DNA from: Candidatus Hodarchaeota archaeon
Lineage (GTDB): Archaea > Asgardarchaeota > Heimdallarchaeia > Hodarchaeales > YT1-057
Reading direction: 5' to 3'
Assembly (NCBI GenBank): GCA_016839955.1
Contig: JAEOTI010000320.1
Coordinates: forward strand, 1 to 18,571
Length of the DNA: 18,571 nt
Part shown: one piece after another, positions 2 to 15,501 of the stretch
How positions within the stretch are numbered: the first letter of the stretch is position 1
Layout: each line of letters opens with the position of its first letter
Made by a program: the position numbers and the translations under genes
Notes under the pieces: model-generated
The model's input: only the letters and a program-made list of their open reading frames with translations
Told to the model about the DNA's origin: nothing
The model's database searches: none

Positions 2-166
2 ATTAAAAATCTCAATCTTGCAATTGATATGGGATATTTCCTGTCAGTGGACGGTTTACGTAATATCTGGCCAGAACTTTTCATTTATACTAATCACCAC
101 GATCGTGAAGAGTGGAAAGAACTTCTTGTACGACTTGAAAAAATACATTCACTATCAAGGAGGTAA
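2..166 (+). CDS. C-terminal end of an unrecognised protein (5' end outside window)
   Basis: Frame 2 is open from the left edge to a TAA at 164-166 and gives a protein-like 54-residue tail (IKNLNLAIDMGYFLSVDGL near its start, ending KIHSLSRR). It has mixed hydrophobic and charged residues and a helical, basic end. I do not recognise the family. The Shine-Dalgarno of the next gene (AGGAGGT, 158-164) lies on the last codons and stop of this frame, so the two genes are probably translated from one message. A competing open frame starting at 18 covers the same bases but has poor composition and no ribosome site. Confidence 0.55.
   Translation: MKNLNLAIDMGYFLSVDGLRNIWPELFIYTNHHDREEWKELLVRLEKIHSLSRR
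158..164 (+). promoter_or_regulatory. Shine-Dalgarno AGGAGGT
   Basis: AGGAGGT lies 9 bases before the ATG at 174. It is a near-complete match to the archaeal anti-Shine-Dalgarno and fixes the GNAT start at 174 rather than at the in-frame ATG at 18. Confidence 0.75.
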
Positions 167-173
167 ATTAGTA

Positions 174-1010
174 ATGTATAAACTTCCAAAAGCAAGGTAT
201 CAACATGTGAAATCAATTTTTAGTGATGAAAGATATAGGTTTTTTCAGATACGTGTTCATGCAATCGCAAGTGAAACCGTTAAAGGAGAGATTTGGGTTG
301 ATAATATCTCAAATCCCCAATCAGTTTGTGTTTGGGACTCCAAATACAAATTTTACCTTGGTGGTAATGTTAGTGACGATATCTATAAATCTCTAAATTA
401 TTTATTGATAAATGAAATAGCTCCTGAAGCGAAGAGGAAAAATCTTGAACATTTTTTTCTTTTTTATCCTCGAGATTCTAATTGGGACATTTATTTACGA
501 AACAACAAAATTATTCGAAATCTTAGAGAAAATAAACGAAGCTATTACCTCTTTCGGGATTCTAATATTACTTGGAAAGAGAGAATTCCTAAAGGCTACT
601 CTGTTAGACGAATTACTAAGGATCTATTAGAAAATACAGATTTAGAAGGAATTCACTTTGTGATTGAGGAGATTGAATCCATGAATAAGTCCATTGATTA
701 TTTCCTTAACAATGGATTTGGATTTTGCGTTATTGATGAAAAAAATGGCAAAATAGTTACCTGGTGCACTTCAGAATATATGGTGAATTCAATGTGTGAA
801 TTTGGAATCGAAACATTTGAAACATATCAAAAGAAAGGATTTGGAACATTAACAGCTGCTGCAGCTGTTGAATACGGAATATCCCAGAATTTTACCAGAC
901 TGGGATGGGATGCATGGGCGAATAATATAGGCTCTAAAAAAATTGCAGAGAAAATTGGTTTTGAAAAAACCGATGAATATTCAATTTATTTTGGTAAATA
1001 TGAGGATTAA
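174..1010 (+). CDS. GNAT-family N-acetyltransferase (paralogue A)
   Basis: A 278-residue protein predicted to transfer an acetyl group from acetyl-CoA to an unknown small molecule or peptide in the cytosol. The GNAT fold sits in the C-terminal half. Motif A is around residues 211-230, with the acetyl-CoA loop Q219-K-K-G-F-G224. Motif B is around 243-263 (LGWDAW, then NNIGSKKIAEKIGF). The first 130 residues form an additional N-terminal domain, as in the longer GNAT_acetyltran-type proteins. The start at 174 is set by the strong Shine-Dalgarno at 158-164. The gene ends five bases before the convergent kinase gene. A full-length paralogue of the same layout lies at 8200-9033. The substrate cannot be read from the sequence. 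Confidence 0.85.
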   Translation: MYKLPKARYQHVKSIFSDERYRFFQIRVHAIASETVKGEIWVDNISNPQSVCVWDSKYKFYLGGNVSDDIYKSLNYLLINEIAPEAKRKNLEHFFLFYPRDSNWDIYLRNNKIIRNLRENKRSYYLFRDSNITWKERIPKGYSVRRITKDLLENTDLEGIHFVIEEIESMNKSIDYFLNNGFGFCVIDEKNGKIVTWCTSEYMVNSMCEFGIETFETYQKKGFGTLTAAAAVEYGISQNFTRLGWDAWANNIGSKKIAEKIGFEKTDEYSIYFGKYED

Positions 1011-2066: not shown

Positions 2067-3242
2067 TCATAAAGATCGGTGAAATATATGTGGTCCTTTT
2101 TTTTGGTAATCTTCCTGAGTAATAAATGATTTTTGATAAGATCTACTGGAGCTTAGGATTGATCCACCAATCCAAGCGGAATATTGACGATCTGAGGGTG
2201 CCACAATCCGAACTTCCATGGTTTCTGGAACAAGTTTGGAAAGTTCAAGTCGGAGGCGTTGCTTTAGACCCGGGAACATTGTGGAACTTCCAGATAAAAT
2301 GATATTATGAAATAACTCTCTCCGTATATCAATTGCACAATCCTGGATCGAATTATAAATGCATTCATTCAATGGTAGATCTTCTTTTCCGAGGAGAGTA
2401 GGATTAAATAGCGCTTCAGGTACTAGGAATCGTTCTGGGCCAACTGTAATTTTTTTATGGGTAGGAAGAGTGTATTGTTTCTCTATCCGTGTTTTATCTT
2501 CTTCTGATATGACTTCTCGTTCGGGATCCAAGGCAATGTAGCATAAATTTCCTTTAATATCTTGGATACTTTCACGTTCTGTGAAGGAAGAGAAAGGATA
2601 ACCTCTTTGTTGTAGGAGTTTTCGAAGATAATCATTCATATCTCTATTTGTAATATTAATGTATGAAATCGCATGAAAAATTGCGAAACCTTTGTAGATT
2701 GGCACAATTTGTATGATTCCATCACTAAACTCAATCACTGTACCAGTGGTTCGGCCAGAAGCATGGAGAGAGAGAACTGCTTGCATAGAAACTTGAATAG
2801 AAGGACAATTGAACGTTTCAAAAAGGATTTCAGCCATTTTCCCCCGGTTTTCATCTGGGTTCAATACAGCTTCTGTTAATAGTACTGGGTGTTCAGAGGG
2901 ATTCACTTTAAGTTCGTCATGGAATGTGTAATGCCAAATTTTTTCCATTGCGTTCCAATCAGATACAACACCACTACGATTGATTGGATAAAATAGACTC
3001 AAGTCATTGTGTAATTTTAAAGCCTCTTTTCCGACGTAAAATTCTAGTTGGATATCTTCCTTCGGAGTAGAAACTTTACTTTGATCTTTCATTCGTGAAG
3101 GAATTCTCAGGTCTTTTCGTTTAGGAAATCCAACTACGGTTGGGAAGATTGAACATGGCTTACTTTCTCCACTAAACCCATTTTTAGAGAAACCCGGATC
3201 ATTATCAATAACAATGGGGGTTCCCGTATTTATCGTGGCCAT
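2067..3242 (-). CDS. divergent Asgard actin-family protein (actin/Arp-like)
   Basis: A 391-residue protein aligning with eukaryotic actin end to end. Landmarks are IDNDPGFSKNGFSG (12-25, phosphate loop 1), YVGKEAL (69-75), DWNAMEKIWHYTF (95-107), EHPVLLTEAVLNP (117-129), the MQAVLSLHASGRTTG helix (153-167), EFSDG (171-175, phosphate loop 2), ERESIQDIK (222-230), LSGSSTMFPG (316-325) and YSAWIGGSIL (354-363). It ends with the actin-like stretch GPHIFHR. Length (391 against 375) differs mainly at the N-terminus and around the D-loop (50-66). K20 and Q154 (actin K18, Q137) are kept. However, GSG of loop 1 is DPG, D154 is E171, G156 is S173, H161 is Q178, G302 is S319, K336 is Q353, and the H73 site is replaced. 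It may therefore bind or hydrolyse ATP differently, like an Arp rather than a conventional filament former. An AAGGA site precedes the ATG. Confidence 0.93.
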   Translation of the reverse strand: MATINTGTPIVIDNDPGFSKNGFSGESKPCSIFPTVVGFPKRKDLRIPSRMKDQSKVSTPKEDIQLEFYVGKEALKLHNDLSLFYPINRSGVVSDWNAMEKIWHYTFHDELKVNPSEHPVLLTEAVLNPDENRGKMAEILFETFNCPSIQVSMQAVLSLHASGRTTGTVIEFSDGIIQIVPIYKGFAIFHAISYINITNRDMNDYLRKLLQQRGYPFSSFTERESIQDIKGNLCYIALDPEREVISEEDKTRIEKQYTLPTHKKITVGPERFLVPEALFNPTLLGKEDLPLNECIYNSIQDCAIDIRRELFHNIILSGSSTMFPGLKQRLRLELSKLVPETMEVRIVAPSDRQYSAWIGGSILSSSRSYQKSFITQEDYQKKGPHIFHRSL

Positions 3243-3269
3243 AGAGCTACCATATCCTTAAAAAAATGC

Positions 3270-3303
3270 AAAATCAAATAAGAAAAATCTAGGATTTGAT
3301 TTT
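3270..3303 (-). repeat. perfect 10-bp inverted repeat in front of the actin-like gene
   Basis: AAAATCAAAT (3270-3279) is repeated as its exact reverse complement ATTTGATTTT (3294-3303) around a 14-base loop. It starts 28 bases upstream of the actin-like ATG. A further copy of TTTGATTTT lies near 3355-3363. It could be an RNA hairpin in the leader or a repressor site. Because it is A/T-rich, chance is a real alternative. Confidence 0.4.
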
Positions 3304-3440
3304 TCTACTTGGATAATGACTTTTAACCAATATTATCTTTCTTGCTTGATTTAGTTTGATTTTTTTTATCTTAATTTCTTTGGTTATTCAAAGAATAGTA
3401 TAACTCAATTTTTGTTAAGTGACTAATAACAATCTTGAAA

Positions 3441-3450
3441 TTTTATATAG
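3441..3450 (-). promoter_or_regulatory. candidate TATA box for the actin-like gene
   Basis: Read on the minus strand this is CTATATAAAA, a good archaeal TATA element, placed just after a T-tract that would end the upstream ABC transcript. Initiation about 25 bases on would leave a leader of roughly 175 bases, which is long for an archaeal message. The element is near-symmetric, so the direction is inferred from context. Confidence 0.4.
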
Positions 3451-3453
3451 ATG

Positions 3454-3466
3454 AAAAAAAAGAAAG
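3454..3466 (-). terminator. T-tract terminator after the ABC permease
   Basis: On the minus strand an eight-T run preceded by TTTC lies about 20 bases after the permease stop. Runs of T at the 3' end are the usual intrinsic termination signal in archaea. Confidence 0.45.
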
Positions 3467-3484
3467 GAATGTAGGTATACTCAT

Positions 3485-5480: not shown

Positions 5481-5546
5481 ATCAAAAATGACGTTTACAG
5501 ACCTGTTTATCCTATTATCAGAAATTAGATGTGCATTCCCACATTC

Positions 5547-5551
5547 GAGGT
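5547..5551 (+). promoter_or_regulatory. Shine-Dalgarno GAGGT deciding the helicase start
   Basis: GAGGT lies seven bases before the ATG at 5559, which favours that start over the in-frame ATG at 5529 that has no ribosome site. Confidence 0.6.
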
Positions 5552-5558
5552 ATTTCAT

Positions 5559-7148
5559 ATGAATAGTTTAGTGTCTCCACGTTCTTATCAACTTGAAATA
5601 CTTCAGCTCCTAGAAAGAAATTCACAACAAAATCAAATCGTCCATCTTGCATTTGGTGCTGGAAAAACATTGATTGCGTTATGGTCAATGATTGAACGAC
5701 GAATAAGAGAACCGAATAATAAAATCCTCTATCTTTCAGCCGGAGAGGGAGGATATGACCGGTCTCGACAAGCACTTGATATGGCAATTAAATTTAATTT
5801 ACAGTCCGAACTCGGTTATTGTTTAGATCCTAAATCAATGTTCGACCGTTCTACTTCGAAACGAAAGGAAATAGCTTGGAAAGAAGCCAATGTAATCTTT
5901 GGTCCTATGCAGGCTATTTGGAACTTATTAGATAGAGATTTTCCGACATCAAAGTCTTCTATTAACTATATTATTGTTGACGAAGTTGCTGACATTGTCT
6001 CTCGGGATTTGGTAGGATGGAGATTCCATAAAAGTGCTGAGGGTCTGTTTAATCTTGCAAAAGAATCTCGAATCCCCATTCTTGGTTTAACTGGTAGTTT
6101 AGACCAGTCTAGGTTAAATGCAGTTGTTAGATTACTTCAAGCTAAACTTATTACTAAGCCAGAGATCCAACCATTCACTTATCAATATTCAACTCTATTT
6201 GTTGAGGATCCTGAAATTCAACGGATTGACTCAATTATTAGTGCTGGTCTGAATGATTGTGCACAAAAAGCTTCAAAATTGTTAGATCATCCTATAACTA
6301 TTGATGTACTCTATGAATTGCTATATGCGGGTTTTCTTAACCGTTTATATCATCCTAAACTCTCATTTCCATCAGAATCTCCCCTTCTGGAAAAGTTGAA
6401 GAATCCTGAAGACCGAAATGCTCTGTTTCAAATATTACGTGACTTTCATCTTTATGCTCATGGTCGTATGATCGCCCTGAATTCCACACCCGATCATTTA
6501 GCAAAATTTATAGAAAAATATAGATTGCCCGCCCCATTATATTATTCTCTGAAGGATTTGATAACTCAAAGGTGGCAAAAAACTGGACTATCGTCAAAAG
6601 TTTTGAGAACAATTATTCCCATTCGTGAAGCCAGTAGAAGAGGTCCTGTAATTGTATTTGCTAGGTTTCTTGACCTTGTAAGTCAATGTGAAAGGACATT
6701 AAAAGCTAATGGAGTAGATGCACGTCAATTAACTGGTCAAACTAAAGTTACATCCAGAAAAATGCTTTTGCAAGAATTTCGGGATAGATCTTTTCCTGTT
6801 CTAGTTTTAAGCCCCCTAGGTACTCGGGGATTAGACCTTCCTGATGTTCAACTTGTAGTCCATCTCGATATTCAACAGAACACTGATGTTGTTGCTCAAC
6901 GATCCGCAAGGATTCGAGGAGGAGAAGTTTGGTATACTATTTATACTAAAACCAGTGAGGAAAACAAATTGCGATTGTTAGAAGACCGACTAGGGACTTC
7001 AAAGCATTATTATGGCAATTCATTTCCACGCGATAAAACGGAAGAAATTACAAAAGAAGAGAAAGAAAAATTACTAAGCAATGACCTTTCAGAAAAACAA
7101 CGAGATTTAATTAGTTGGTTTGAACAACATAAAGATCAAAATGGATAA
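5559..7148 (+). CDS. divergent SF2 helicase, Hef/FANCM-like
   Basis: A 529-residue protein with two RecA-like domains. Domain 1 has an RSYQ N-terminal motif, Walker A AFGAGKT (31-37), Walker B VDEVAD (DEVA, 141-144) and motif III LTGS (177-180). A helical insertion (about 220-350) separates the domains, as in Hef, MDA5/RIG-I and FANCM helicases. Domain 2 has motif IV VIVFAR (364-369), motif V SPLGTRGLDLP (418-428) and a variant motif VI QRSARIRGG (447-455). The C-terminal tail after 490 is charged. Motif Ia is replaced by an unusual LSAGEGGYD stretch. There is no ERCC4-type nuclease domain after it. Its likely role is remodelling branched DNA or dsRNA, but the motif changes leave its substrate open. 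The start at 5559 is chosen by GAGGT. Confidence 0.82.
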   Translation: MNSLVSPRSYQLEILQLLERNSQQNQIVHLAFGAGKTLIALWSMIERRIREPNNKILYLSAGEGGYDRSRQALDMAIKFNLQSELGYCLDPKSMFDRSTSKRKEIAWKEANVIFGPMQAIWNLLDRDFPTSKSSINYIIVDEVADIVSRDLVGWRFHKSAEGLFNLAKESRIPILGLTGSLDQSRLNAVVRLLQAKLITKPEIQPFTYQYSTLFVEDPEIQRIDSIISAGLNDCAQKASKLLDHPITIDVLYELLYAGFLNRLYHPKLSFPSESPLLEKLKNPEDRNALFQILRDFHLYAHGRMIALNSTPDHLAKFIEKYRLPAPLYYSLKDLITQRWQKTGLSSKVLRTIIPIREASRRGPVIVFARFLDLVSQCERTLKANGVDARQLTGQTKVTSRKMLLQEFRDRSFPVLVLSPLGTRGLDLPDVQLVVHLDIQQNTDVVAQRSARIRGGEVWYTIYTKTSEENKLRLLEDRLGTSKHYYGNSFPRDKTEEITKEEKEKLLSNDLSEKQRDLISWFEQHKDQNG

Positions 7149-8186: not shown

Positions 8187-8191
8187 GGTGA
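8187..8191 (+). promoter_or_regulatory. Shine-Dalgarno GGTGA deciding the GNAT B start
   Basis: GGTGA is complementary to the 16S 3' end and is eight bases from the ATG at 8200. The alternative GTG start at 8188 lies inside this ribosome site, so it is unlikely to be used. Confidence 0.6.
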
Positions 8192-8199
8192 GAAAATTT

Positions 8200-9033
8200 A
8201 TGCTAACCGAATTGAGTCCAGAAGATTTTCCTCGAATAGAACCATTATTAACTGATCTTGATTATTTGAAAGGTTTTTTGAAAATTATATTAATGGGAAA
8301 CCACAACGCACGAATTTGGGTTGATTCTGCATTCAAACCAGCGTCTGCATTAATTTGGGATACTCGATATGCATTCGTCATAGCAGGATCGACAGATGTT
8401 CCAGGATTTAATACAGAACTTGAAAATTTATTTACTAAAATTATTGCTCCTGATGCTCTTCAACGAGGTTTTGAACAGGTCTGGTTGATGTGCTCTGGTA
8501 GATGGGCTGAACAATTATTTAATAATGGGAATTTTATTGAGATTTCTCTCAAAAAATACCCCAGGCAGTACTATGTTCTCACTCAGTCCCCCAGAAAGAA
8601 TTGGAAAAAGCTAATACCAGACGAAGTCTCCTTAAAATCTGTGGATTCTGATTTCTTTAAGTTAAAAGATTTGAAAAATCACAACACAATAATTGATATG
8701 CTGAATCTCCAATGGCGGTCATTAGATGATTTTTATCAACTTGGTTTCGGTTTTTGCCTTGTGAAAGAAGATACAATTCTTAGCTGGTGTTTATCGGAGT
8801 TTAATGCTGAAGATATATGTGATATTGAAATTGAAACTGTGGAAGAGTACCAACAAAAAGGTTTTGCGACCTTAGTTGCTTTAGCATTTCTTGAGGAAGC
8901 CTTTTCTCGAGGTTATAAAGAAGTCGGGTGGCATACTTTCACTCAGAACATCCCTAGTGTTCGTACCGCTCAGAAATTAGGCTTTAGCGTTGAGAAAGAA
9001 TACTTTAGTTATGTGTGGACACACAACAAATGA
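8200..9033 (+). CDS. GNAT-family N-acetyltransferase (paralogue B)
   Basis: A 277-residue acetyl-CoA-dependent acetyltransferase of the same layout as the protein encoded at 174-1010. An N-terminal domain of about 130 residues is followed by the GNAT core. Shared landmarks are FYQLGFGFC (178-186; FLNNGFGFC in paralogue A), SWC (195-197), motif A IETVEEYQQKGFATL (211-225, pyrophosphate loop Q218-Q-K-G-F-A223) and motif B VGWHTF, NIPSVRTAQKLGF (242-262). The last glycine of the QxxGxG/A loop is alanine, which is allowed. The gene is single with its own TATA candidate and ends four bases from the convergent surface-protein gene. Substrate unknown. Confidence 0.85.
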   Translation: MLTELSPEDFPRIEPLLTDLDYLKGFLKIILMGNHNARIWVDSAFKPASALIWDTRYAFVIAGSTDVPGFNTELENLFTKIIAPDALQRGFEQVWLMCSGRWAEQLFNNGNFIEISLKKYPRQYYVLTQSPRKNWKKLIPDEVSLKSVDSDFFKLKDLKNHNTIIDMLNLQWRSLDDFYQLGFGFCLVKEDTILSWCLSEFNAEDICDIEIETVEEYQQKGFATLVALAFLEEAFSRGYKEVGWHTFTQNIPSVRTAQKLGFSVEKEYFSYVWTHNK

Positions 9034-9037
9034 AAGT

Positions 9038-10891
9038 CTAAATTAGTTGGGTACGAACTTTTCTAGTTAATATAACCATTGAAAAGGCTGAGATTAGTAA
9101 TATCGTATCGAAATTACTTCCGGAGTTCTTGGAATCTTTATCAACGATTGTTACAATTATTCTATCCCTGCTTGATAACCCTGTTTCATAACAGATGATG
9201 ATAGTAAAATTGTAGACTCCCGGACTTAGATCATCAATAGAAATTGTGAGTTCTGTTGTGTTCCAACTCCCAGATGCTTTTATTGTCCCATTTTGATAAA
9301 TCGTATAGTTGAGAGGGTAGCAATTGTCTCTAGTCCATGTAATGTTTACTTTGGAACTTTCTTCATCCCATTTAATGTCTGAAGGATGACCTATTGAAGG
9401 AGGGACAGTATCATCAAAGACAGTGATCCAAACTGTATCCGTTGCTTGGTTTCCAATGATATCAAGGGCAACTAATGTAATTCTATTGTTACCAATTGAT
9501 AAGCTTGCTAGGTTAAATGAGATTGAACCATTCCACCATCTGTCGCTCACCACAGGATTATAACCTAGATAAACAAAATACGATCCTCCGGAGTGTTCGT
9601 CACTTATCGTCCAGGTAATATTTACATTTGCTTTATTCGTAAAAGAAGTCATGCAATTACCAGGAGATACAATAAAGGGGGAATTATTCTCCGGATGGTT
9701 AATTATTTTCAAACTAAAGGTTAAAACTTCAGCAGAAGTTTGATTATTGAAGAAAAACTGAAATTTATGTATTCCATCTTCAAAGATAGTTGTGTTAATT
9801 TCAAAAATAGCATGGGTTGGATTAAAGAGATTTCCTGTTGCCTCAGACCATTCTTCATCATTAATTTTCACTTGAAGGCTATCGAAGGTTACATTGTTCA
9901 ATGTGAAATTTAGAACGATGTTCCCAGAAATAACTGTTCCGTTAACAAGTTCCGAAGGAGCAATGATATTTCTTCCGTTCCAACCTGCTAACCGGACCCA
10001 AAGCCACCAAGCAGCATATGCTTTCATGTTAGCGTTTAAAGGCTGGCTGTGGGCGGAAGAACATGAATACCATTCACCCGGATGGGCATCTTGCCATTCG
10101 ATCGCCCAATTACCAATTTGGTAATTACAAGCATCGTCGACATATCTGTCTCCAAAGTATTCTCCATCTGGATTAAAAGATTCAATATCTTCGAAATCGA
10201 AAAGGATTTTGTTATTAGCTAAACAATAGTCACGAATTTGCTGATTATTTATTGCTACACTTCCAGCTAAACCAGCTCCGTCCGTGTGTCCCGTCATATA
10301 GACAAAATGCACATTGGGGAAATCGTTCTCAAGCTGTGTCATAGGATCTAGGTAATGATCAATAAGCCCTTGTTCTGTATAACTTCCAACCTGCCCACAC
10401 CAGGACCACATCACCACATTGACATCTGAATGTGCAGGGTCATTAAGATAATTCCTAGTGGCAAGTGCCCAGTCATCATATCCCAAATCTGATGCAGAAG
10501 GAGCATAACTACCCATAGCGTAATCATCTAGATCAAGCGCACCTGATAGAGGGCCGTCGTTCCAGTCATAAAGTCCTGGTGTTCCTCCAAGCCCCTCTTT
10601 GAAGGCAGGAAGATCTAGCATGCCCGTCGTGATTTGACTACCATGAGAAGTATGTTGGTAAGCTATATGCAAGTTGTTCTTAGCATTTTCAATCATACTC
10701 TCTGGAACTTCATCGTCCATGATTTGTCTAATAATAGAATGATCAGCGATAATCGGAGTTCCAAATTGGTTGATTGAAGATTTATGCCTCCTAGAGGTGT
10801 TAGTACCTTCATTTAAAGAAGATGATAAAGGAATTTGTCCAATAAGAAGAAATAAAAAGATTATTAGTAATGTATAATTCGATTTTGGCAT
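9038..10891 (-). CDS. secreted SGNH-hydrolase-like surface protein with Ig-like region and C-terminal anchor
   Basis: A 617-residue exported protein starting at the ATG at 10891 (AAGGTT seven bases upstream). It has a signal peptide (residues 1-25; hydrophobic LLIIFLFLLIGQ). The N-terminal domain (about 45-310) carries HTSHGSQ (80-86), FVYMTGHTDG (196-205) and SSAHSQPLN (278-286). These resemble nucleophile, block-III/oxyanion and catalytic-His segments of SGNH esterases, with S85 and H281 as candidate catalytic residues. Beta-rich Ig/FN3-like modules follow (about 312-585), rich in N-x-S/T sequons. A terminal hydrophobic stretch (about 595-609) ends in RK-rich residues, like an archaeal CTERM anchor but without the PGF motif. 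An upstream ATG at 10939 would bury the signal peptide. Enzyme class is inference; a binding-only role is possible. Confidence 0.75.
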   Translation of the reverse strand: MPKSNYTLLIIFLFLLIGQIPLSSSLNEGTNTSRRHKSSINQFGTPIIADHSIIRQIMDDEVPESMIENAKNNLHIAYQHTSHGSQITTGMLDLPAFKEGLGGTPGLYDWNDGPLSGALDLDDYAMGSYAPSASDLGYDDWALATRNYLNDPAHSDVNVVMWSWCGQVGSYTEQGLIDHYLDPMTQLENDFPNVHFVYMTGHTDGAGLAGSVAINNQQIRDYCLANNKILFDFEDIESFNPDGEYFGDRYVDDACNYQIGNWAIEWQDAHPGEWYSCSSAHSQPLNANMKAYAAWWLWVRLAGWNGRNIIAPSELVNGTVISGNIVLNFTLNNVTFDSLQVKINDEEWSEATGNLFNPTHAIFEINTTIFEDGIHKFQFFFNNQTSAEVLTFSLKIINHPENNSPFIVSPGNCMTSFTNKANVNITWTISDEHSGGSYFVYLGYNPVVSDRWWNGSISFNLASLSIGNNRITLVALDIIGNQATDTVWITVFDDTVPPSIGHPSDIKWDEESSKVNITWTRDNCYPLNYTIYQNGTIKASGSWNTTELTISIDDLSPGVYNFTIIICYETGLSSRDRIIVTIVDKDSKNSGSNFDTILLISAFSMVILTRKVRTQLI

Positions 10892-11069
10892 AAGTAAAAC
10901 CTTAAGGAAGTGTGTTATCGCAAGAAATGTTGAATTCAAGCTAACCTAGTTACTTTCTTCTATTCCTTTCATTTAGAGGATATCATTTGGTTATTTTAAG
11001 ATTTGTCAAATAAAAGTTGTAATAATAACGGGGTTTGAATCTAAAAGAATAAACAAAATTATAATCGCA

Positions 11070-11723: not shown

Positions 11724-13307
11724 TTGACAATTGTTTTGACTGGTTCTGATTTAACTATTGGAGATCTTGTAAAAGTGGCTCGGCATGGTGAAGAGGTAGA
11801 AATTCATCCAGATGCTAAAGCCCGAATGAAAGCTTGTCGTGACATGTTAGAAGAGAAAATTGCTGCACGAGAAATGATGTATGGTATTACAACAGGGATA
11901 GGAGAATTCTCTGAAACTTTCCTTGACGAAGAACAGACGAAACAGTTCCAACGTTATCTTATTTATAACCATGCAGCGGGCATCGGAGATCCCGCTCCGA
12001 TTGAATTTGTCCGTGGAGCAATGTGTTCTAGAGTTAATGTCTTATCAAAAGGATATTCTGGTAATCGACCAATTATTGCTGAAACATTTGTACAGATGCT
12101 CAATAAAGGTGTGACCCCTTACGTTTGTCAAAAGGGCAGTGTGGGGGCATCAGGCGATCTCGCGCCAATGTCGCAAATAGCATTACTCCTTATGGGCGAA
12201 GGTAGAGCTTATTATAAAGGTGAATTGCTTCCTGGAAAGGAAGCTATGGATCAAGCAGGGATAGAAATTCCCGGTTTGATGCCTCGTGATGGTCTGGCCG
12301 CAATAAATGGATCTAATTTACTTACTGCAATGAGTGCAATAACATTGTATGATGTGAATCGTTTCTTTAAACAAGCTGAAATTGCTGCAGCGATGACACT
12401 TGAGGCTTTGAAAGCTAATACAAAACCATATACACCTACTCTTCATGAACTCCGTGGTTTCTCCGGAGCTATTCGATGCGCAAACAGCCTGAAAAAGATT
12501 CTAGCAAATGGGGACATTGCGGAAGGTCGACTGAAGGTAAAGGTTCAAGATGCTTACAGTATGCGAAGCACACCGCAAGTGATTGGAGCAGCCCATGATG
12601 CTTTAGTTTGGGCCAGAAAACAAGTTGAAATTGAATTAAATGGTGTCGGAGATAATCCTGTCTTTTTGACTGAAGAGAAATTAACTCTTACCGGTGCAAA
12701 CTTCCAAGGTACGCCTGTTTGCTTGCCAATGGATATGATTGGCGCAGCTGTCACAATGGTTTGTGTGATGAGCGAACGTCGAATGAATAGGCTTAACCAT
12801 CCTGCGCTAAACGTTGGTTTGCCTGCTTTTCTTACCAAAGGCGCTGGTTTGATGTCTGGGTTGATGCTTAGTCAGTACACCGCTGACATGCAAATCGTAG
12901 AGATGCGTATTCTTTCTATGCCTGCTAGTATTCAAAGTATTCCCGCCGCTGCAGACCAAGAAGACTTTGTTTCAATGGGAATGAACACAGCAATCAAGAA
13001 TGTCCAAATCATGGATAATGCATTTGGTGTTCTAGGAATCGAGTTTATGGCTGCTGCTCAAGCATTGGACTTCCGGGAGAAGGATGAAGGACAAAACTTT
13101 GGAACTGGTGTAGAAAAAGCCCGAGAGATTATCCGGAAATATGTGGAGTTCCTTGATGAAGACCGTCCACTCTATGATGACCATACTGCAATGAAAAGTT
13201 TAGTTAAATCCTGTGAAATCCTTGACGAAGTCGAGAAAGTGATTGGAAGTCTCGAATGGAAACCAAAAGAGGAAAAAACATCAGAGTCATACCCGTCAAT
13301 CCATTAA
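11724..13307 (+). CDS. hutH: MIO-type aromatic amino-acid ammonia-lyase, histidine ammonia-lyase family
   Basis: A 527-residue cytosolic enzyme that would remove ammonia from histidine (to urocanate) or a related amino acid using the self-made MIO group. The MIO triad A142-S143-G144 lies in GSVGASGDLAPMSQ. Also visible are the catalytic Y53 (YGITTG), H83 (NHAAG), the INGSN loop, and QEDFVSMG near 430. Homotetramers are usual. The HAL-typical QEDHVSMG has F in place of H, and SENKALAHPAS of HAL reads VEMRILSMPAS, so substrate choice is uncertain. No hutU, hutI or hutG is in the window. Start is TTG, with AAGGA 13 bases upstream. G+C is higher than in the flanking genes (sampled lines 55, 30 and 50 percent, against 28 in the methyltransferase), which hints at acquisition from bacteria. 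Confidence 0.88.
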   Translation: MTIVLTGSDLTIGDLVKVARHGEEVEIHPDAKARMKACRDMLEEKIAAREMMYGITTGIGEFSETFLDEEQTKQFQRYLIYNHAAGIGDPAPIEFVRGAMCSRVNVLSKGYSGNRPIIAETFVQMLNKGVTPYVCQKGSVGASGDLAPMSQIALLLMGEGRAYYKGELLPGKEAMDQAGIEIPGLMPRDGLAAINGSNLLTAMSAITLYDVNRFFKQAEIAAAMTLEALKANTKPYTPTLHELRGFSGAIRCANSLKKILANGDIAEGRLKVKVQDAYSMRSTPQVIGAAHDALVWARKQVEIELNGVGDNPVFLTEEKLTLTGANFQGTPVCLPMDMIGAAVTMVCVMSERRMNRLNHPALNVGLPAFLTKGAGLMSGLMLSQYTADMQIVEMRILSMPASIQSIPAAADQEDFVSMGMNTAIKNVQIMDNAFGVLGIEFMAAAQALDFREKDEGQNFGTGVEKAREIIRKYVEFLDEDRPLYDDHTAMKSLVKSCEILDEVEKVIGSLEWKPKEEKTSESYPSIH

Positions 13308-14484: not shown

Positions 14485-15501
14485 TTAAAGGACAACTTGA
14501 TCTTTACAGTTTGGACAAAAAGTGAGACTTTCCAGCCAATCTGTCCAATGTTCTCTATAAGCACGAGTTCCACAGTACGAACAAAGTAATATCTCCCTCG
14601 CAGAGAAATAGGATCCTCGTTCTAGTTTTTCTGGTTTTTTTCGTGAACTTTTCATCTCTTCCTTATCAAGATTTGTCATTAACTCCATCTTTGCTCTTTC
14701 TAGAGAAATAAAGAATCCTTGCGGAGTGAAGAAACCACTAGGTCTCGTAATTTTTTCACAAAGACTTTGGACATGTTCTTCAGAAATTCCCTTTTTTTCA
14801 GCGAATGATTGGAGACTTACTTGCCCTTGCTCTTCAAGTTCTTTCTTCCATTTACTAACTTCTTCCCGGGAGATTTTAATGAATGCATTACTAGAAAAAA
14901 CCCCTTTGATATCATTTGAATCTGTTAGGTTGTAGGTCGCTTTTTGGATCACATTTATTGGGAGATTTAGTTGTTTTGCAGCGTCTTTATAATATATTTC
15001 TCGTTGTTTACTTGAGTTGATGTGCTCCTTTACCAAAACATTTGTCGACGTTATTGATTCGTTGTCAAGAAGTATAATATCTGTCATTTTCTGAATTATT
15101 TCTTGGATAACTGTTTTTGGAATTCCTAATTTTACACCTGCATCATGAAGGGAAATCTTCTCCTCAACAATAATTAAGCCCTCAATTGATTTCTTTACTG
15201 AGTCTTTAGAATGAATCTGATTATTGTGAAGAAAGGCAAAACCTTGCATCTTTTGTTTAAAGTCTTTAAATTCCTTATCAGAAAACAGTCCTTCTATGTT
15301 ACTTAGATTTACATTCCCTTGAGACAGGATGATCTGTTGAGCTTCCCACCCTTTCTGCATGAAATCCGGTTTTTTAGAGTGTAAATATAAAAATAAAGTT
15401 AATATTATTGTGATAAAAATACCACCAAGCCCTATGAAGACTAGAAATAAAAGTACTTCGTCAGAGATTATTTTATTCACCACTTGGGGTATTAAAGTCA
15501 A
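14485..15501 (-). CDS. membrane-anchored winged-helix-repeat protein with zinc ribbon, UFL1-like
   Basis: A 338-residue protein with an N-terminal membrane segment (16-40) followed by basic residues, so the rest is probably cytosolic. Four repeats of about 50 residues follow (about 58-105, 110-160, 166-220, 224-278). Each begins with a short strand and a helix-turn-helix of the form G-x-V-x-L-x-x-x-A-x-x-x-x-I (KISLHDAGVKLGIPKTVI; EIYYKDAAKQLNLPINVI; GQVSLQSFAEKKGISEEHV) and ends with a wing (GFFTPQGFFISLERA). This pattern is that of the winged-helix repeats of UFL1, the UFM1 E3 ligase. A charged linker (280-296) leads to a zinc ribbon (C307, C310, C329, C332). Start is TTG with no clear ribosome site; the GTG codons 7-8 are alternatives. 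A generic transcription-factor-like WH protein is the other reading. Confidence 0.6.
   Translation of the reverse strand: MTLIPQVVNKIISDEVLLFLVFIGLGGIFITIILTLFLYLHSKKPDFMQKGWEAQQIILSQGNVNLSNIEGLFSDKEFKDFKQKMQGFAFLHNNQIHSKDSVKKSIEGLIIVEEKISLHDAGVKLGIPKTVIQEIIQKMTDIILLDNESITSTNVLVKEHINSSKQREIYYKDAAKQLNLPINVIQKATYNLTDSNDIKGVFSSNAFIKISREEVSKWKKELEEQGQVSLQSFAEKKGISEEHVQSLCEKITRPSGFFTPQGFFISLERAKMELMTNLDKEEMKSSRKKPEKLERGSYFSAREILLCSYCGTRAYREHWTDWLESLTFCPNCKDQVVL

What the first reader, a model, noticed from the sequence alone, without database searches (positions are those of the whole stretch)
2067..3242. Actin-family protein with a rebuilt nucleotide pocket
The chain follows eukaryotic actin from end to end, yet residues that hold or hydrolyse ATP are changed together. 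Loop 1 GSG is D15-P16-G17, loop 2 D154 is E171 and G156 is S173, the catalytic-water partner H161 is Q178, G302 is S319, and adenine-contacting K336 is Q353. Q137 and K18 equivalents remain. This suggests a second, Arp-like Asgard actin that may bind nucleotide but hydrolyse it slowly or not at all, for instance as a nucleator or cap for the conventional actin.
Basis: partly seen in the sequence, partly recalled or inferred. Interest (0 to 1): 0.75.

Follow-up and report, generated by a model that had tools for sequence, protein, structure and literature searches.

The report
Runaway archaeal actin with altered pocket
A stretch of DNA from an Asgard archaeon, close to the group nearest to eukaryotes, carries an intact actin gene that descends from ordinary archaeal actin but has changed its ATP site and one of its two filament-joining faces, so it may work as a special helper actin rather than as a normal filament brick.

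Summary
One, K336Q, is common in Asgard actins (13 of 74). None of 74 near Asgard actins has the pocket changes. The best listed match in 227 Asgard genomes is 60% identical. The tree nests it among Hodarchaeales-side conventional actins on a branch of 0.94, median 0.029: a lokiactin by descent, not by residues. Changes concentrate in the pocket and, more strongly, the pointed face; the barbed face is not significantly above background. Best reading: a lineage-specific Arp-like actin, poor or dead as an ATPase, most likely a pointed-end terminal subunit, or else a non-polymerising regulator. Hydrolysis, ATP binding, polymerisation and the presence of a conventional actin in the same genome are untested; no genome is held and the lineage is poorly sampled.

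The parts
2067..3242 (-). Divergent actin-family gene, 391 aa, ATG start at 3242
3195..3200 (-). Loop 1, residues 15-16 (D-P) in place of G13-S/T14
   Evidence: 0 of 74 near Asgard actins have D13 or P14
3036..3119 (-). D-loop region, residues 42-69, 12 residues longer than the Asgard consensus; hydrophobic residues at 44 and 47 lost
   Evidence: the only protein found with residues 38-95 as query was the window's own
3003..3011 (-). Residues 78-80 H-N-D in place of R62-G63-I/V64 (pointed face)
2973..2981 (-). Sensor (H) loop, residues 88-90 N-R-S in place of E72-H73, one residue longer
2706..2732 (-). Loop 2 and H161 site, residues 171-179 (E-F-S-D-G-I-I-Q-I)
2550..2564 (-). Residues 227-231: Q227 for R210, G231 for E214; K230 kept for K213
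2457..2462 (-). Residues 261-262 T-H in place of D244-G245 (pointed face)
2322..2333 (-). Barbed-face segment I304-D305-I306-R307 (actin 287-290): I287, D288 and R290 kept
2286..2291 (-). Residues G318-S319: S319 in place of G302
3243..3484 (-). 242-base gap between the actin and the upstream ABC transporter gene on the same strand; probably its own promoter region (inference)

Best explanation
This is a lineage-specific descendant of the conventional Hodarchaeales-side actin (lokiactin type) that has evolved far faster than its relatives while staying under selection, and has become an Arp-like protein. SHOWN by sequence: intact gene; nested among Hodarchaeales-side actins on a very long branch; catalytic D154 and H161, gate residues H73 and R177, phosphate-loop residues 13, 14 and 156 and residues 182, 210, 214 and 302 replaced together; pointed face altered (lengthened D-loop without the hydrophobic residues at 44 and 47, R62H, G63N, D244T, G245H); barbed-face residues I287, D288, R290, G168, F169, I345 and L346 kept. 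INFERRED: it does not hydrolyse ATP at a normal rate and has lost the normal nucleotide clock, so nucleotide, if bound, is structural. INFERRED, less sure: because it can still offer a barbed face to the D-loop of a conventional actin but no longer a normal pointed face, it sits as the last subunit at the pointed end of conventional actin filaments, as a cap or a starting template, the geometry used by Arp2/Arp3 toward the daughter filament and by Arp11 in dynactin.
For: Residue survey: pocket changes absent from 74 of 74 near Asgard actins, and from 35 of 35 conventional-type locus proteins (11 further locus rows are divergent actin-like proteins and vary). Tree with pocket and D-loop residues masked in the window protein nests it in a 23-row Hodarchaeales-side clade (100/98) with an end branch of 0.94, median 0.029; same side in the larger tree. 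Selection kept: the window differs from consensus at 54 of 187 near-invariant, 45 of 104 intermediate and 56 of 83 variable columns; neutral substitution down to 60% identity gave 9.8 stops on average and a stop-free frame in 0 of 200 simulations. Pattern: pointed face 12 of 19, pocket 9 of 20, barbed face 8 of 28, remaining core 22 of 115 near-invariant columns changed; one-sided Fisher against the core p = 0.0002, 0.016 and 0.20. Mechanism from passages of papers: D154/H161/Q137 chemistry and the R177/N111/H73/G74 back door (PMC9646518); triple mutant ATPase-dead but polymerising (PMC6867828); R62-D288 and D244-R290 bridges (PMC10019781, partly in Plasmodium numbering; PMC10918085); barbed faces of Arp2/Arp3 take the D-loops and R62 of daughter actins (PMC10918085); Arp11 belongs to dynactin's pointed end and its subdomains 2 and 4 touch p25 and p27 (PMC8047447).
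Against: The barbed face is not untouched: E167K, Y143H, D286A, L349S and S at 355 (L or M in the others) make its cleft more polar. Direct pointed-versus-barbed comparison is only p = 0.034, and 0.22 with the region lists printed in PMC10019781; without the ambiguously aligned D-loop columns the pointed-face excess is p = 0.03 against the rest. Pocket against all other columns is p = 0.08. The sets were drawn up partly after seeing the alignment and the p values are not corrected for several tests. Q137, D157, K18 and K213 are kept, so some nucleotide binding or slow hydrolysis is possible. No ortholog was found to show that the changes are conserved. No conventional actin partner was seen, because no genome is held. 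The placement rests on a long branch.
Confidence: 0.4

Rival explanations
1. A stand-alone, non-polymerising scaffold or adaptor actin, like the nuclear Arp4 or Arp8: ATP, if bound, only props the fold open or shut, and the long D-loop insertion binds a partner protein.
For: Arp4 binds ATP structurally and did not hydrolyse it above background, and Arp8 has H73 replaced by R and H161 by S plus insertions that explain its inability to polymerise (PMC3510490, passages); the window protein also has R at 73, a replaced H161 and an insertion. The cleft on its barbed face is also partly altered.
Against: The barbed-face residues I287, D288 and R290 are kept, and barbed-face columns are not changed significantly more than the core (8 of 28 against 22 of 115, p = 0.20), which is hard to explain if neither face is used.
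Confidence: 0.3
2. It is the only actin of an unsampled, fast-evolving lineage and still makes filaments with different chemistry.
For: No genome is held for the window. The lineage is poorly sampled: the helicase at 5529-7148 has no relative above 62% in the protein database and only 30-33% in the 25 matches at E 1e-52 or better among 227 Asgard genomes.
Against: The rest of the contig is not so fast: the aromatic lyase is 80-81% identical to genomes (e.g. G014, G015, G018, G024) to whose best actin the window actin is 56% identical, and conventional Asgard actins are 73-95% identical to P0031. None of 16 other window genes has a match (tblastn E 1e-10) beside the actin gene in the ten loci L001-L010 (held flanks up to 6 kb), apart from ABC ATPase matches at 30-32% in four of them.
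Confidence: 0.13
3. A redundant duplicate losing its function by relaxed selection.
For: Changes are spread over the whole protein (54 of 187 near-invariant columns).
Against: Intact frame where neutral substitution predicts about 10 stops; constraint still graded by column conservation; changes concentrated in functional sites rather than uniform (24 of 44 in pocket, back door and pointed face against 30 of 143; p = 3.5e-5).
Confidence: 0.1
4. A working ATPase with compensating residues (E for D154, Q for H161), co-polymerising with normal actin.
For: Both replacements are chemically related; Q137, D157, K18 and D11 remain.
Against: Gate residues H73 and R177, loop-1 position 14 and base-side positions changed at once; pointed-face bridge residues R62 and D244 lost.
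Confidence: 0.07

Closest known systems
Conventional Asgard actin (lokiactin type) of the Hodarchaeales side, e.g. P0031 and loci L001-L008, L010
   Same: Fold, length along the whole chain, 58-60% identity, tree position
   Different: The pocket changes (except K336Q), the sensor loop, the D-loop insertion and the pointed-face residues
Solved 'HC1 actin' 9wc4 (best PDB match)
   Same: 464 bits, best stretch residues 6-386
   Different: 9wc4 keeps G13, D154, G156 and H161 and has R at 336 in the printed alignment
Eukaryotic Arp2/Arp3 and dynactin Arp11
   Same: Works-like analogy: a diverged actin whose barbed face receives actin and whose pointed face is specialised (PMC10918085; PMC8047447; passages)
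   Different: No kinship claimed; eukaryotic Arp sequences were not in the trees; in the solved branch junction Arp3 carried ADP-BeFx and Arp2 ATP (PMC10918085, abstract)
Nuclear Arp4 and Arp8
   Same: Arp8: replaced H161 and H73, insertions, low ATPase; Arp4: no ATPase above background (PMC3510490, passages)
   Different: The window protein keeps Q137, which is E in Arp8 and apparently T in yeast Arp4
Divergent Asgard actin-like proteins (e.g. L064 from genome G012, 35% identical)
   Same: L064 also reads E at 154, S at 156 and Y at 177
   Different: Apart from it in the tree, so the likeness looks convergent; very long branches make this unsure

Membership tests
Actin family (PF00022) | Full-length match above the curated cut-off | tested here: met
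   336 bits against a cut-off of 27, residues 8-389
Conventional Asgard actin (lokiactin) | Position inside the conventional Asgard actin clade | tested here: met
   Inside a 23-row clade, 100/98, with pocket and D-loop masked in the window protein, nearest join 86/76; 87/80 and 90/88; long branch, so the exact neighbour is unsure
Conventional Asgard actin (lokiactin) | Conserved ATPase and nucleotide residues | tested here: not met
   Changes at 13, 14, 154, 156, 161, 182, 210, 214, 302
Conventional Asgard actin (lokiactin) | Gene neighbourhood of the conventional gene | tested here: not met
   None of 10 loci shares a window neighbour except ABC ATPase matches at 30-32% in 4 of 10; flanks held are at most 6 kb, less in five loci
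Conventional Asgard actin (lokiactin) | Polymerises with ATP hydrolysis | not testable with these tools
   needs purified protein
Deep-branching Asgard actin-like proteins | Grouping with divergent Asgard actin-like proteins (27-36% identical) | tested here: not met
   7 such rows: six form a weakly supported group, the seventh (L066) falls on an unresolved fork; the window protein joins neither. All seven have very long branches
Eukaryotic Arps (Arp2, Arp3, Arp4, Arp11) | Orthology in a tree | not tested
   only eukaryotic actins, no Arps, were rows; eukaryotic actins group apart 100/100
Crenactin / syringactin | NCBIfam equivalog score | tested here: not met
   42 of 630 bits and 84 of 300 bits

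The most novel reading that the evidence does not exclude
An archaeon close to the eukaryote-sister lineage has on its own turned a conventional actin into a nucleotide-uncoupled, pointed-end-specialised Arp: the first step of the path by which eukaryotes made Arp2, Arp3 and Arp11, seen a second time outside eukaryotes.
Probability: 0.25. Interest if true: 0.8.

Novelty: new variant of a known kind. Interest (0 to 1): 0.52.

Why it matters
[quoted passage not shown] An Asgard actin that left the conventional mould on the Hodarchaeales side, losing catalytic and pointed-face residues but keeping barbed-face contacts, would be an independent replay of that step and can be tested directly with purified proteins.

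Tried and rejected
Viral origin: a scan of viral contigs found no relative, and none of the 17 window proteins scanned with Pfam matched a virus-specific family (three had no match). Ortholog by the D-loop segment: of 3 candidates only the window's own protein scored. Deep Asgard Arp: not supported by the tree. Pocket-only change: rejected; against all other columns p = 0.08, and the pointed face is changed more. K336Q as evidence of altered catalysis: rejected as background. Structure: AlphaFold2 with 40 rows gave a middling model (pLDDT 71.5, pTM 0.61); the 50 Foldseek rows shown, of 947 matches, are actin or actin-containing entries at TM about 0.5 and rmsd 8.5-11.3, so no geometry was read from it. 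A matched control, conventional P0031 with the same rows, gave pLDDT 80.6, pTM 0.77; the low parts of the window model at residues 43-65, 154-166, 182-191 and 351-358 are weak hints only. Own genome: not held. Literature: the listings of searches (20 of 47 papers; 4 of 5; 2 of 3; 12 of 32) show no title on a pocket-altered Hodarchaeales actin; the library lacks most subscription papers, so this is not proof of absence. The paper behind 9wc4 was not found or read.

Full report
WHAT IS THERE. The open reading frame at 2067-3242 is on the minus strand, starts with ATG at 3242 and encodes 391 residues. It is an actin from end to end: PF00022 at 336 bits, best solved relative 'HC1 actin' 9wc4 at 464 bits, then eukaryotic actins near 400 bits (60 of 160 matches shown). 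Upstream on the same strand, 242 bases away, lie an ABC-2 membrane protein and its ATPase; downstream, also on the same strand, an APH-type kinase. The other genes with a family match look like ordinary cellular ones. No tRNA was found.

WHERE IT COMES FROM. No genome is held for the window. The contig looks like Heimdallarchaeia: the helicase at 5529-7148 has relatives at E 1e-52 or better in 25 of 227 Asgard genomes, all 25 also in the 58-genome class set; the metallo-beta-lactamase is 52-54% identical to five genomes (G002, G005, G007, G009, G045), four of which carry the Hodarchaeales-type actin; the aromatic lyase is up to 81% identical to genomes of the G014/G015/G024 group and 78% to G047. 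The lineage itself is poorly sampled: the nearest helicases in the protein database are 61-62% identical (3 proteins). This limits every statement about absence below.

THE RESIDUES. Against 74 near Asgard actins (the proteins of at most 420 residues among the 120 listed, window left out; 45 longer ones dropped) the window protein has G13D, T/S14P, H73R with an inserted residue, D154E, G156S, H161Q, R177Y, G182N, R210Q, E214G and G302S. At 13, 154, 156, 161, 182, 214 and 302 all 74 are canonical; at 210 one has K; at 14 all are T or S (68 and 6). K336Q is not special: 13 of 74 have Q, 60 R, 1 H. The same canonical residues stand in 35 of 35 conventional-type locus proteins; the 11 other locus rows are divergent actin-like proteins. 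The D-loop is 12 residues longer than the Asgard consensus, and a search with residues 38-95 found only the window's own protein.

IS IT MORE THAN DRIFT? 187 columns are at least 97% conserved among the 74; the window breaks 54. When each other actin is left out in turn the worst breaks 14 of 194 and the median is 0. Differences from the consensus rise with column variability (54 of 187, 45 of 104, 56 of 83), so constraint remains. Random substitution of a relative's gene down to 60% identity produced 9.8 stops on average and never a stop-free frame in 200 runs (insertions and deletions not modelled). The gene is thus maintained.

WHERE THE CHANGES LIE. I sorted near-invariant columns into pocket, back door and sensor, pointed face, barbed face and remaining core. 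The pocket list is recalled; the face lists are partly from PMC10019781, partly recalled. Changed: pocket 9 of 20, back door 3 of 5, pointed face 12 of 19, barbed face 8 of 28, core 22 of 115. Against the core: pocket p = 0.016, pointed p = 0.0002, barbed p = 0.20; pocket, back door and pointed together 24 of 44 against 30 of 143 elsewhere, p = 3.5e-5. Against my reading: pocket against all other columns is only p = 0.08; pointed against barbed directly is p = 0.034, and 0.22 on the lists of PMC10019781; the D-loop columns depend on an uncertain gap placement, and without them the pointed excess is 7 of 13 against 41 of 166, p = 0.03. The lists were fixed partly after seeing the alignment, and no correction for several tests was made. 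In the two known intrastrand salt bridges, R62-D288 and D244-R290 (PMC10019781; PMC10918085), both pointed-side residues are lost (H and T) and both barbed-side residues are kept. Yet the barbed cleft also carries E167K, Y143H, D286A, L349S and S at 355.

ANCESTRY. Among 63 rows (Asgard actins, eight eukaryotic actins, seven divergent Asgard actin-like proteins) the window protein falls among Hodarchaeales-side conventional actins (87/80 with P0041, P0064, P0111; 90/88 for the 17-row group) with an end branch of 1.12, median 0.05; 22 of 58 inner branches of that tree are open and the divergent rows have branches of 3.8 to 9.5. With its pocket and D-loop masked, the divergent rows removed and the other rows partly changed (56 rows), it stays on that side (23-row clade 100/98; nearest join 86/76) with a branch of 0.94, median 0.029. 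Among 29 columns where the window residue is shared by only one to seven of the 74, the group P0041, P0044, P0050, P0052, P0064, P0066, P0111 shares R at 225 (7 of 7) and P at 199 (5 of 7); most other such columns point elsewhere. Conventional Asgard actins are 73-95% identical to P0031, but the window protein is 53-60% identical to the 74. The actin loci L001-L010 share no window neighbour except ABC ATPase matches at 30-32% in four of ten. This fits a duplicate, but a moved single copy is not excluded.

HOW IT WORKS. In filaments Q137 places the attacking water, D154 and H161 hold the water thought to take the proton, and phosphate is thought to leave by a back door of R177, N111, H73 and G74, with S14 switching (PMC9646518, passages). 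The Q137A/D154A/H161A mutant hydrolyses nothing measurable yet binds nucleotide and polymerises (PMC6867828, passages). The window protein keeps Q137, N111 and G74 and has lost D154, H161, R177, H73 and S/T14. I infer little or no hydrolysis and no normal phosphate-release timing. Whether ATP is bound is open: proline at 14 would remove a backbone contact and base-side residues (role recalled) are replaced, but K18, D157 and K213 remain. With the pointed face altered and the barbed bridge residues kept, the best single reading is a terminal subunit at the pointed end of conventional filaments, as Arp2 and Arp3 present barbed faces to the daughter filament (PMC10918085, passages) and Arp11 belongs to dynactin's pointed end (PMC8047447, passages). 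The nearest rival is a stand-alone scaffold of the Arp4/Arp8 type (PMC3510490, passages).

KNOWN OR NEW. Asgard genomes are known to carry several actin-like proteins: four in Lokiarchaeum ossiferum, one lokiactin and three grouping with Arps (PMC9834061, passages), and putative ARP2/3 homologs are mentioned for some Hodarchaeales (PMC12077186, passage). A conventional-clade actin with this pocket was not seen in the listings of searches, within the limits of that library. I file it as a new variant of a known kind.

Noticed in passing
window 5529-7148 (+): Helicase with relatives at E 1e-52 or better in 25 of 227 Asgard genomes, all in the Heimdallarchaeia class set, 31-33% identical; three relatives at 61-62% in the protein database.
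   Followed up: partly
window 11724-13307 (+): Histidine/aromatic ammonia-lyase, 530 bits to an NCBIfam histidine ammonia-lyase model (cut-off 524), up to 81% identical to Heimdallarchaeia genomes; in 22 of 58 genomes, by my count of the listing, a second 35-39% identical copy lies beside it on the other strand; none lies in this window.
   Followed up: partly
L064 (genome G012): Another Asgard actin-like protein, 35% identical, with E at 154, S at 156 and Y at 177: pocket loss may have happened more than once in Asgard actins.
   Followed up: partly
P0064, P0066, P0111: Three conventional-type actins near the window protein in the tree with faster change than usual (14, 14 and 16 broken conserved columns, counted without these three in the reference); perhaps a mildly diverged sister form.
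   Followed up: partly
window 14485-15501 (-): Protein with a likely N-terminal membrane segment and a C-terminal pair of CxxC motifs (read by eye), no Pfam or NCBIfam match.
   Followed up: no
window 3-1010 (+) and 8188-9033 (+): Two GNAT_acetyltran (PF12746) genes in one contig.
   Followed up: no
window 9038-10939 (-): Large, probably secreted protein (by eye) with no Pfam family.
   Followed up: no
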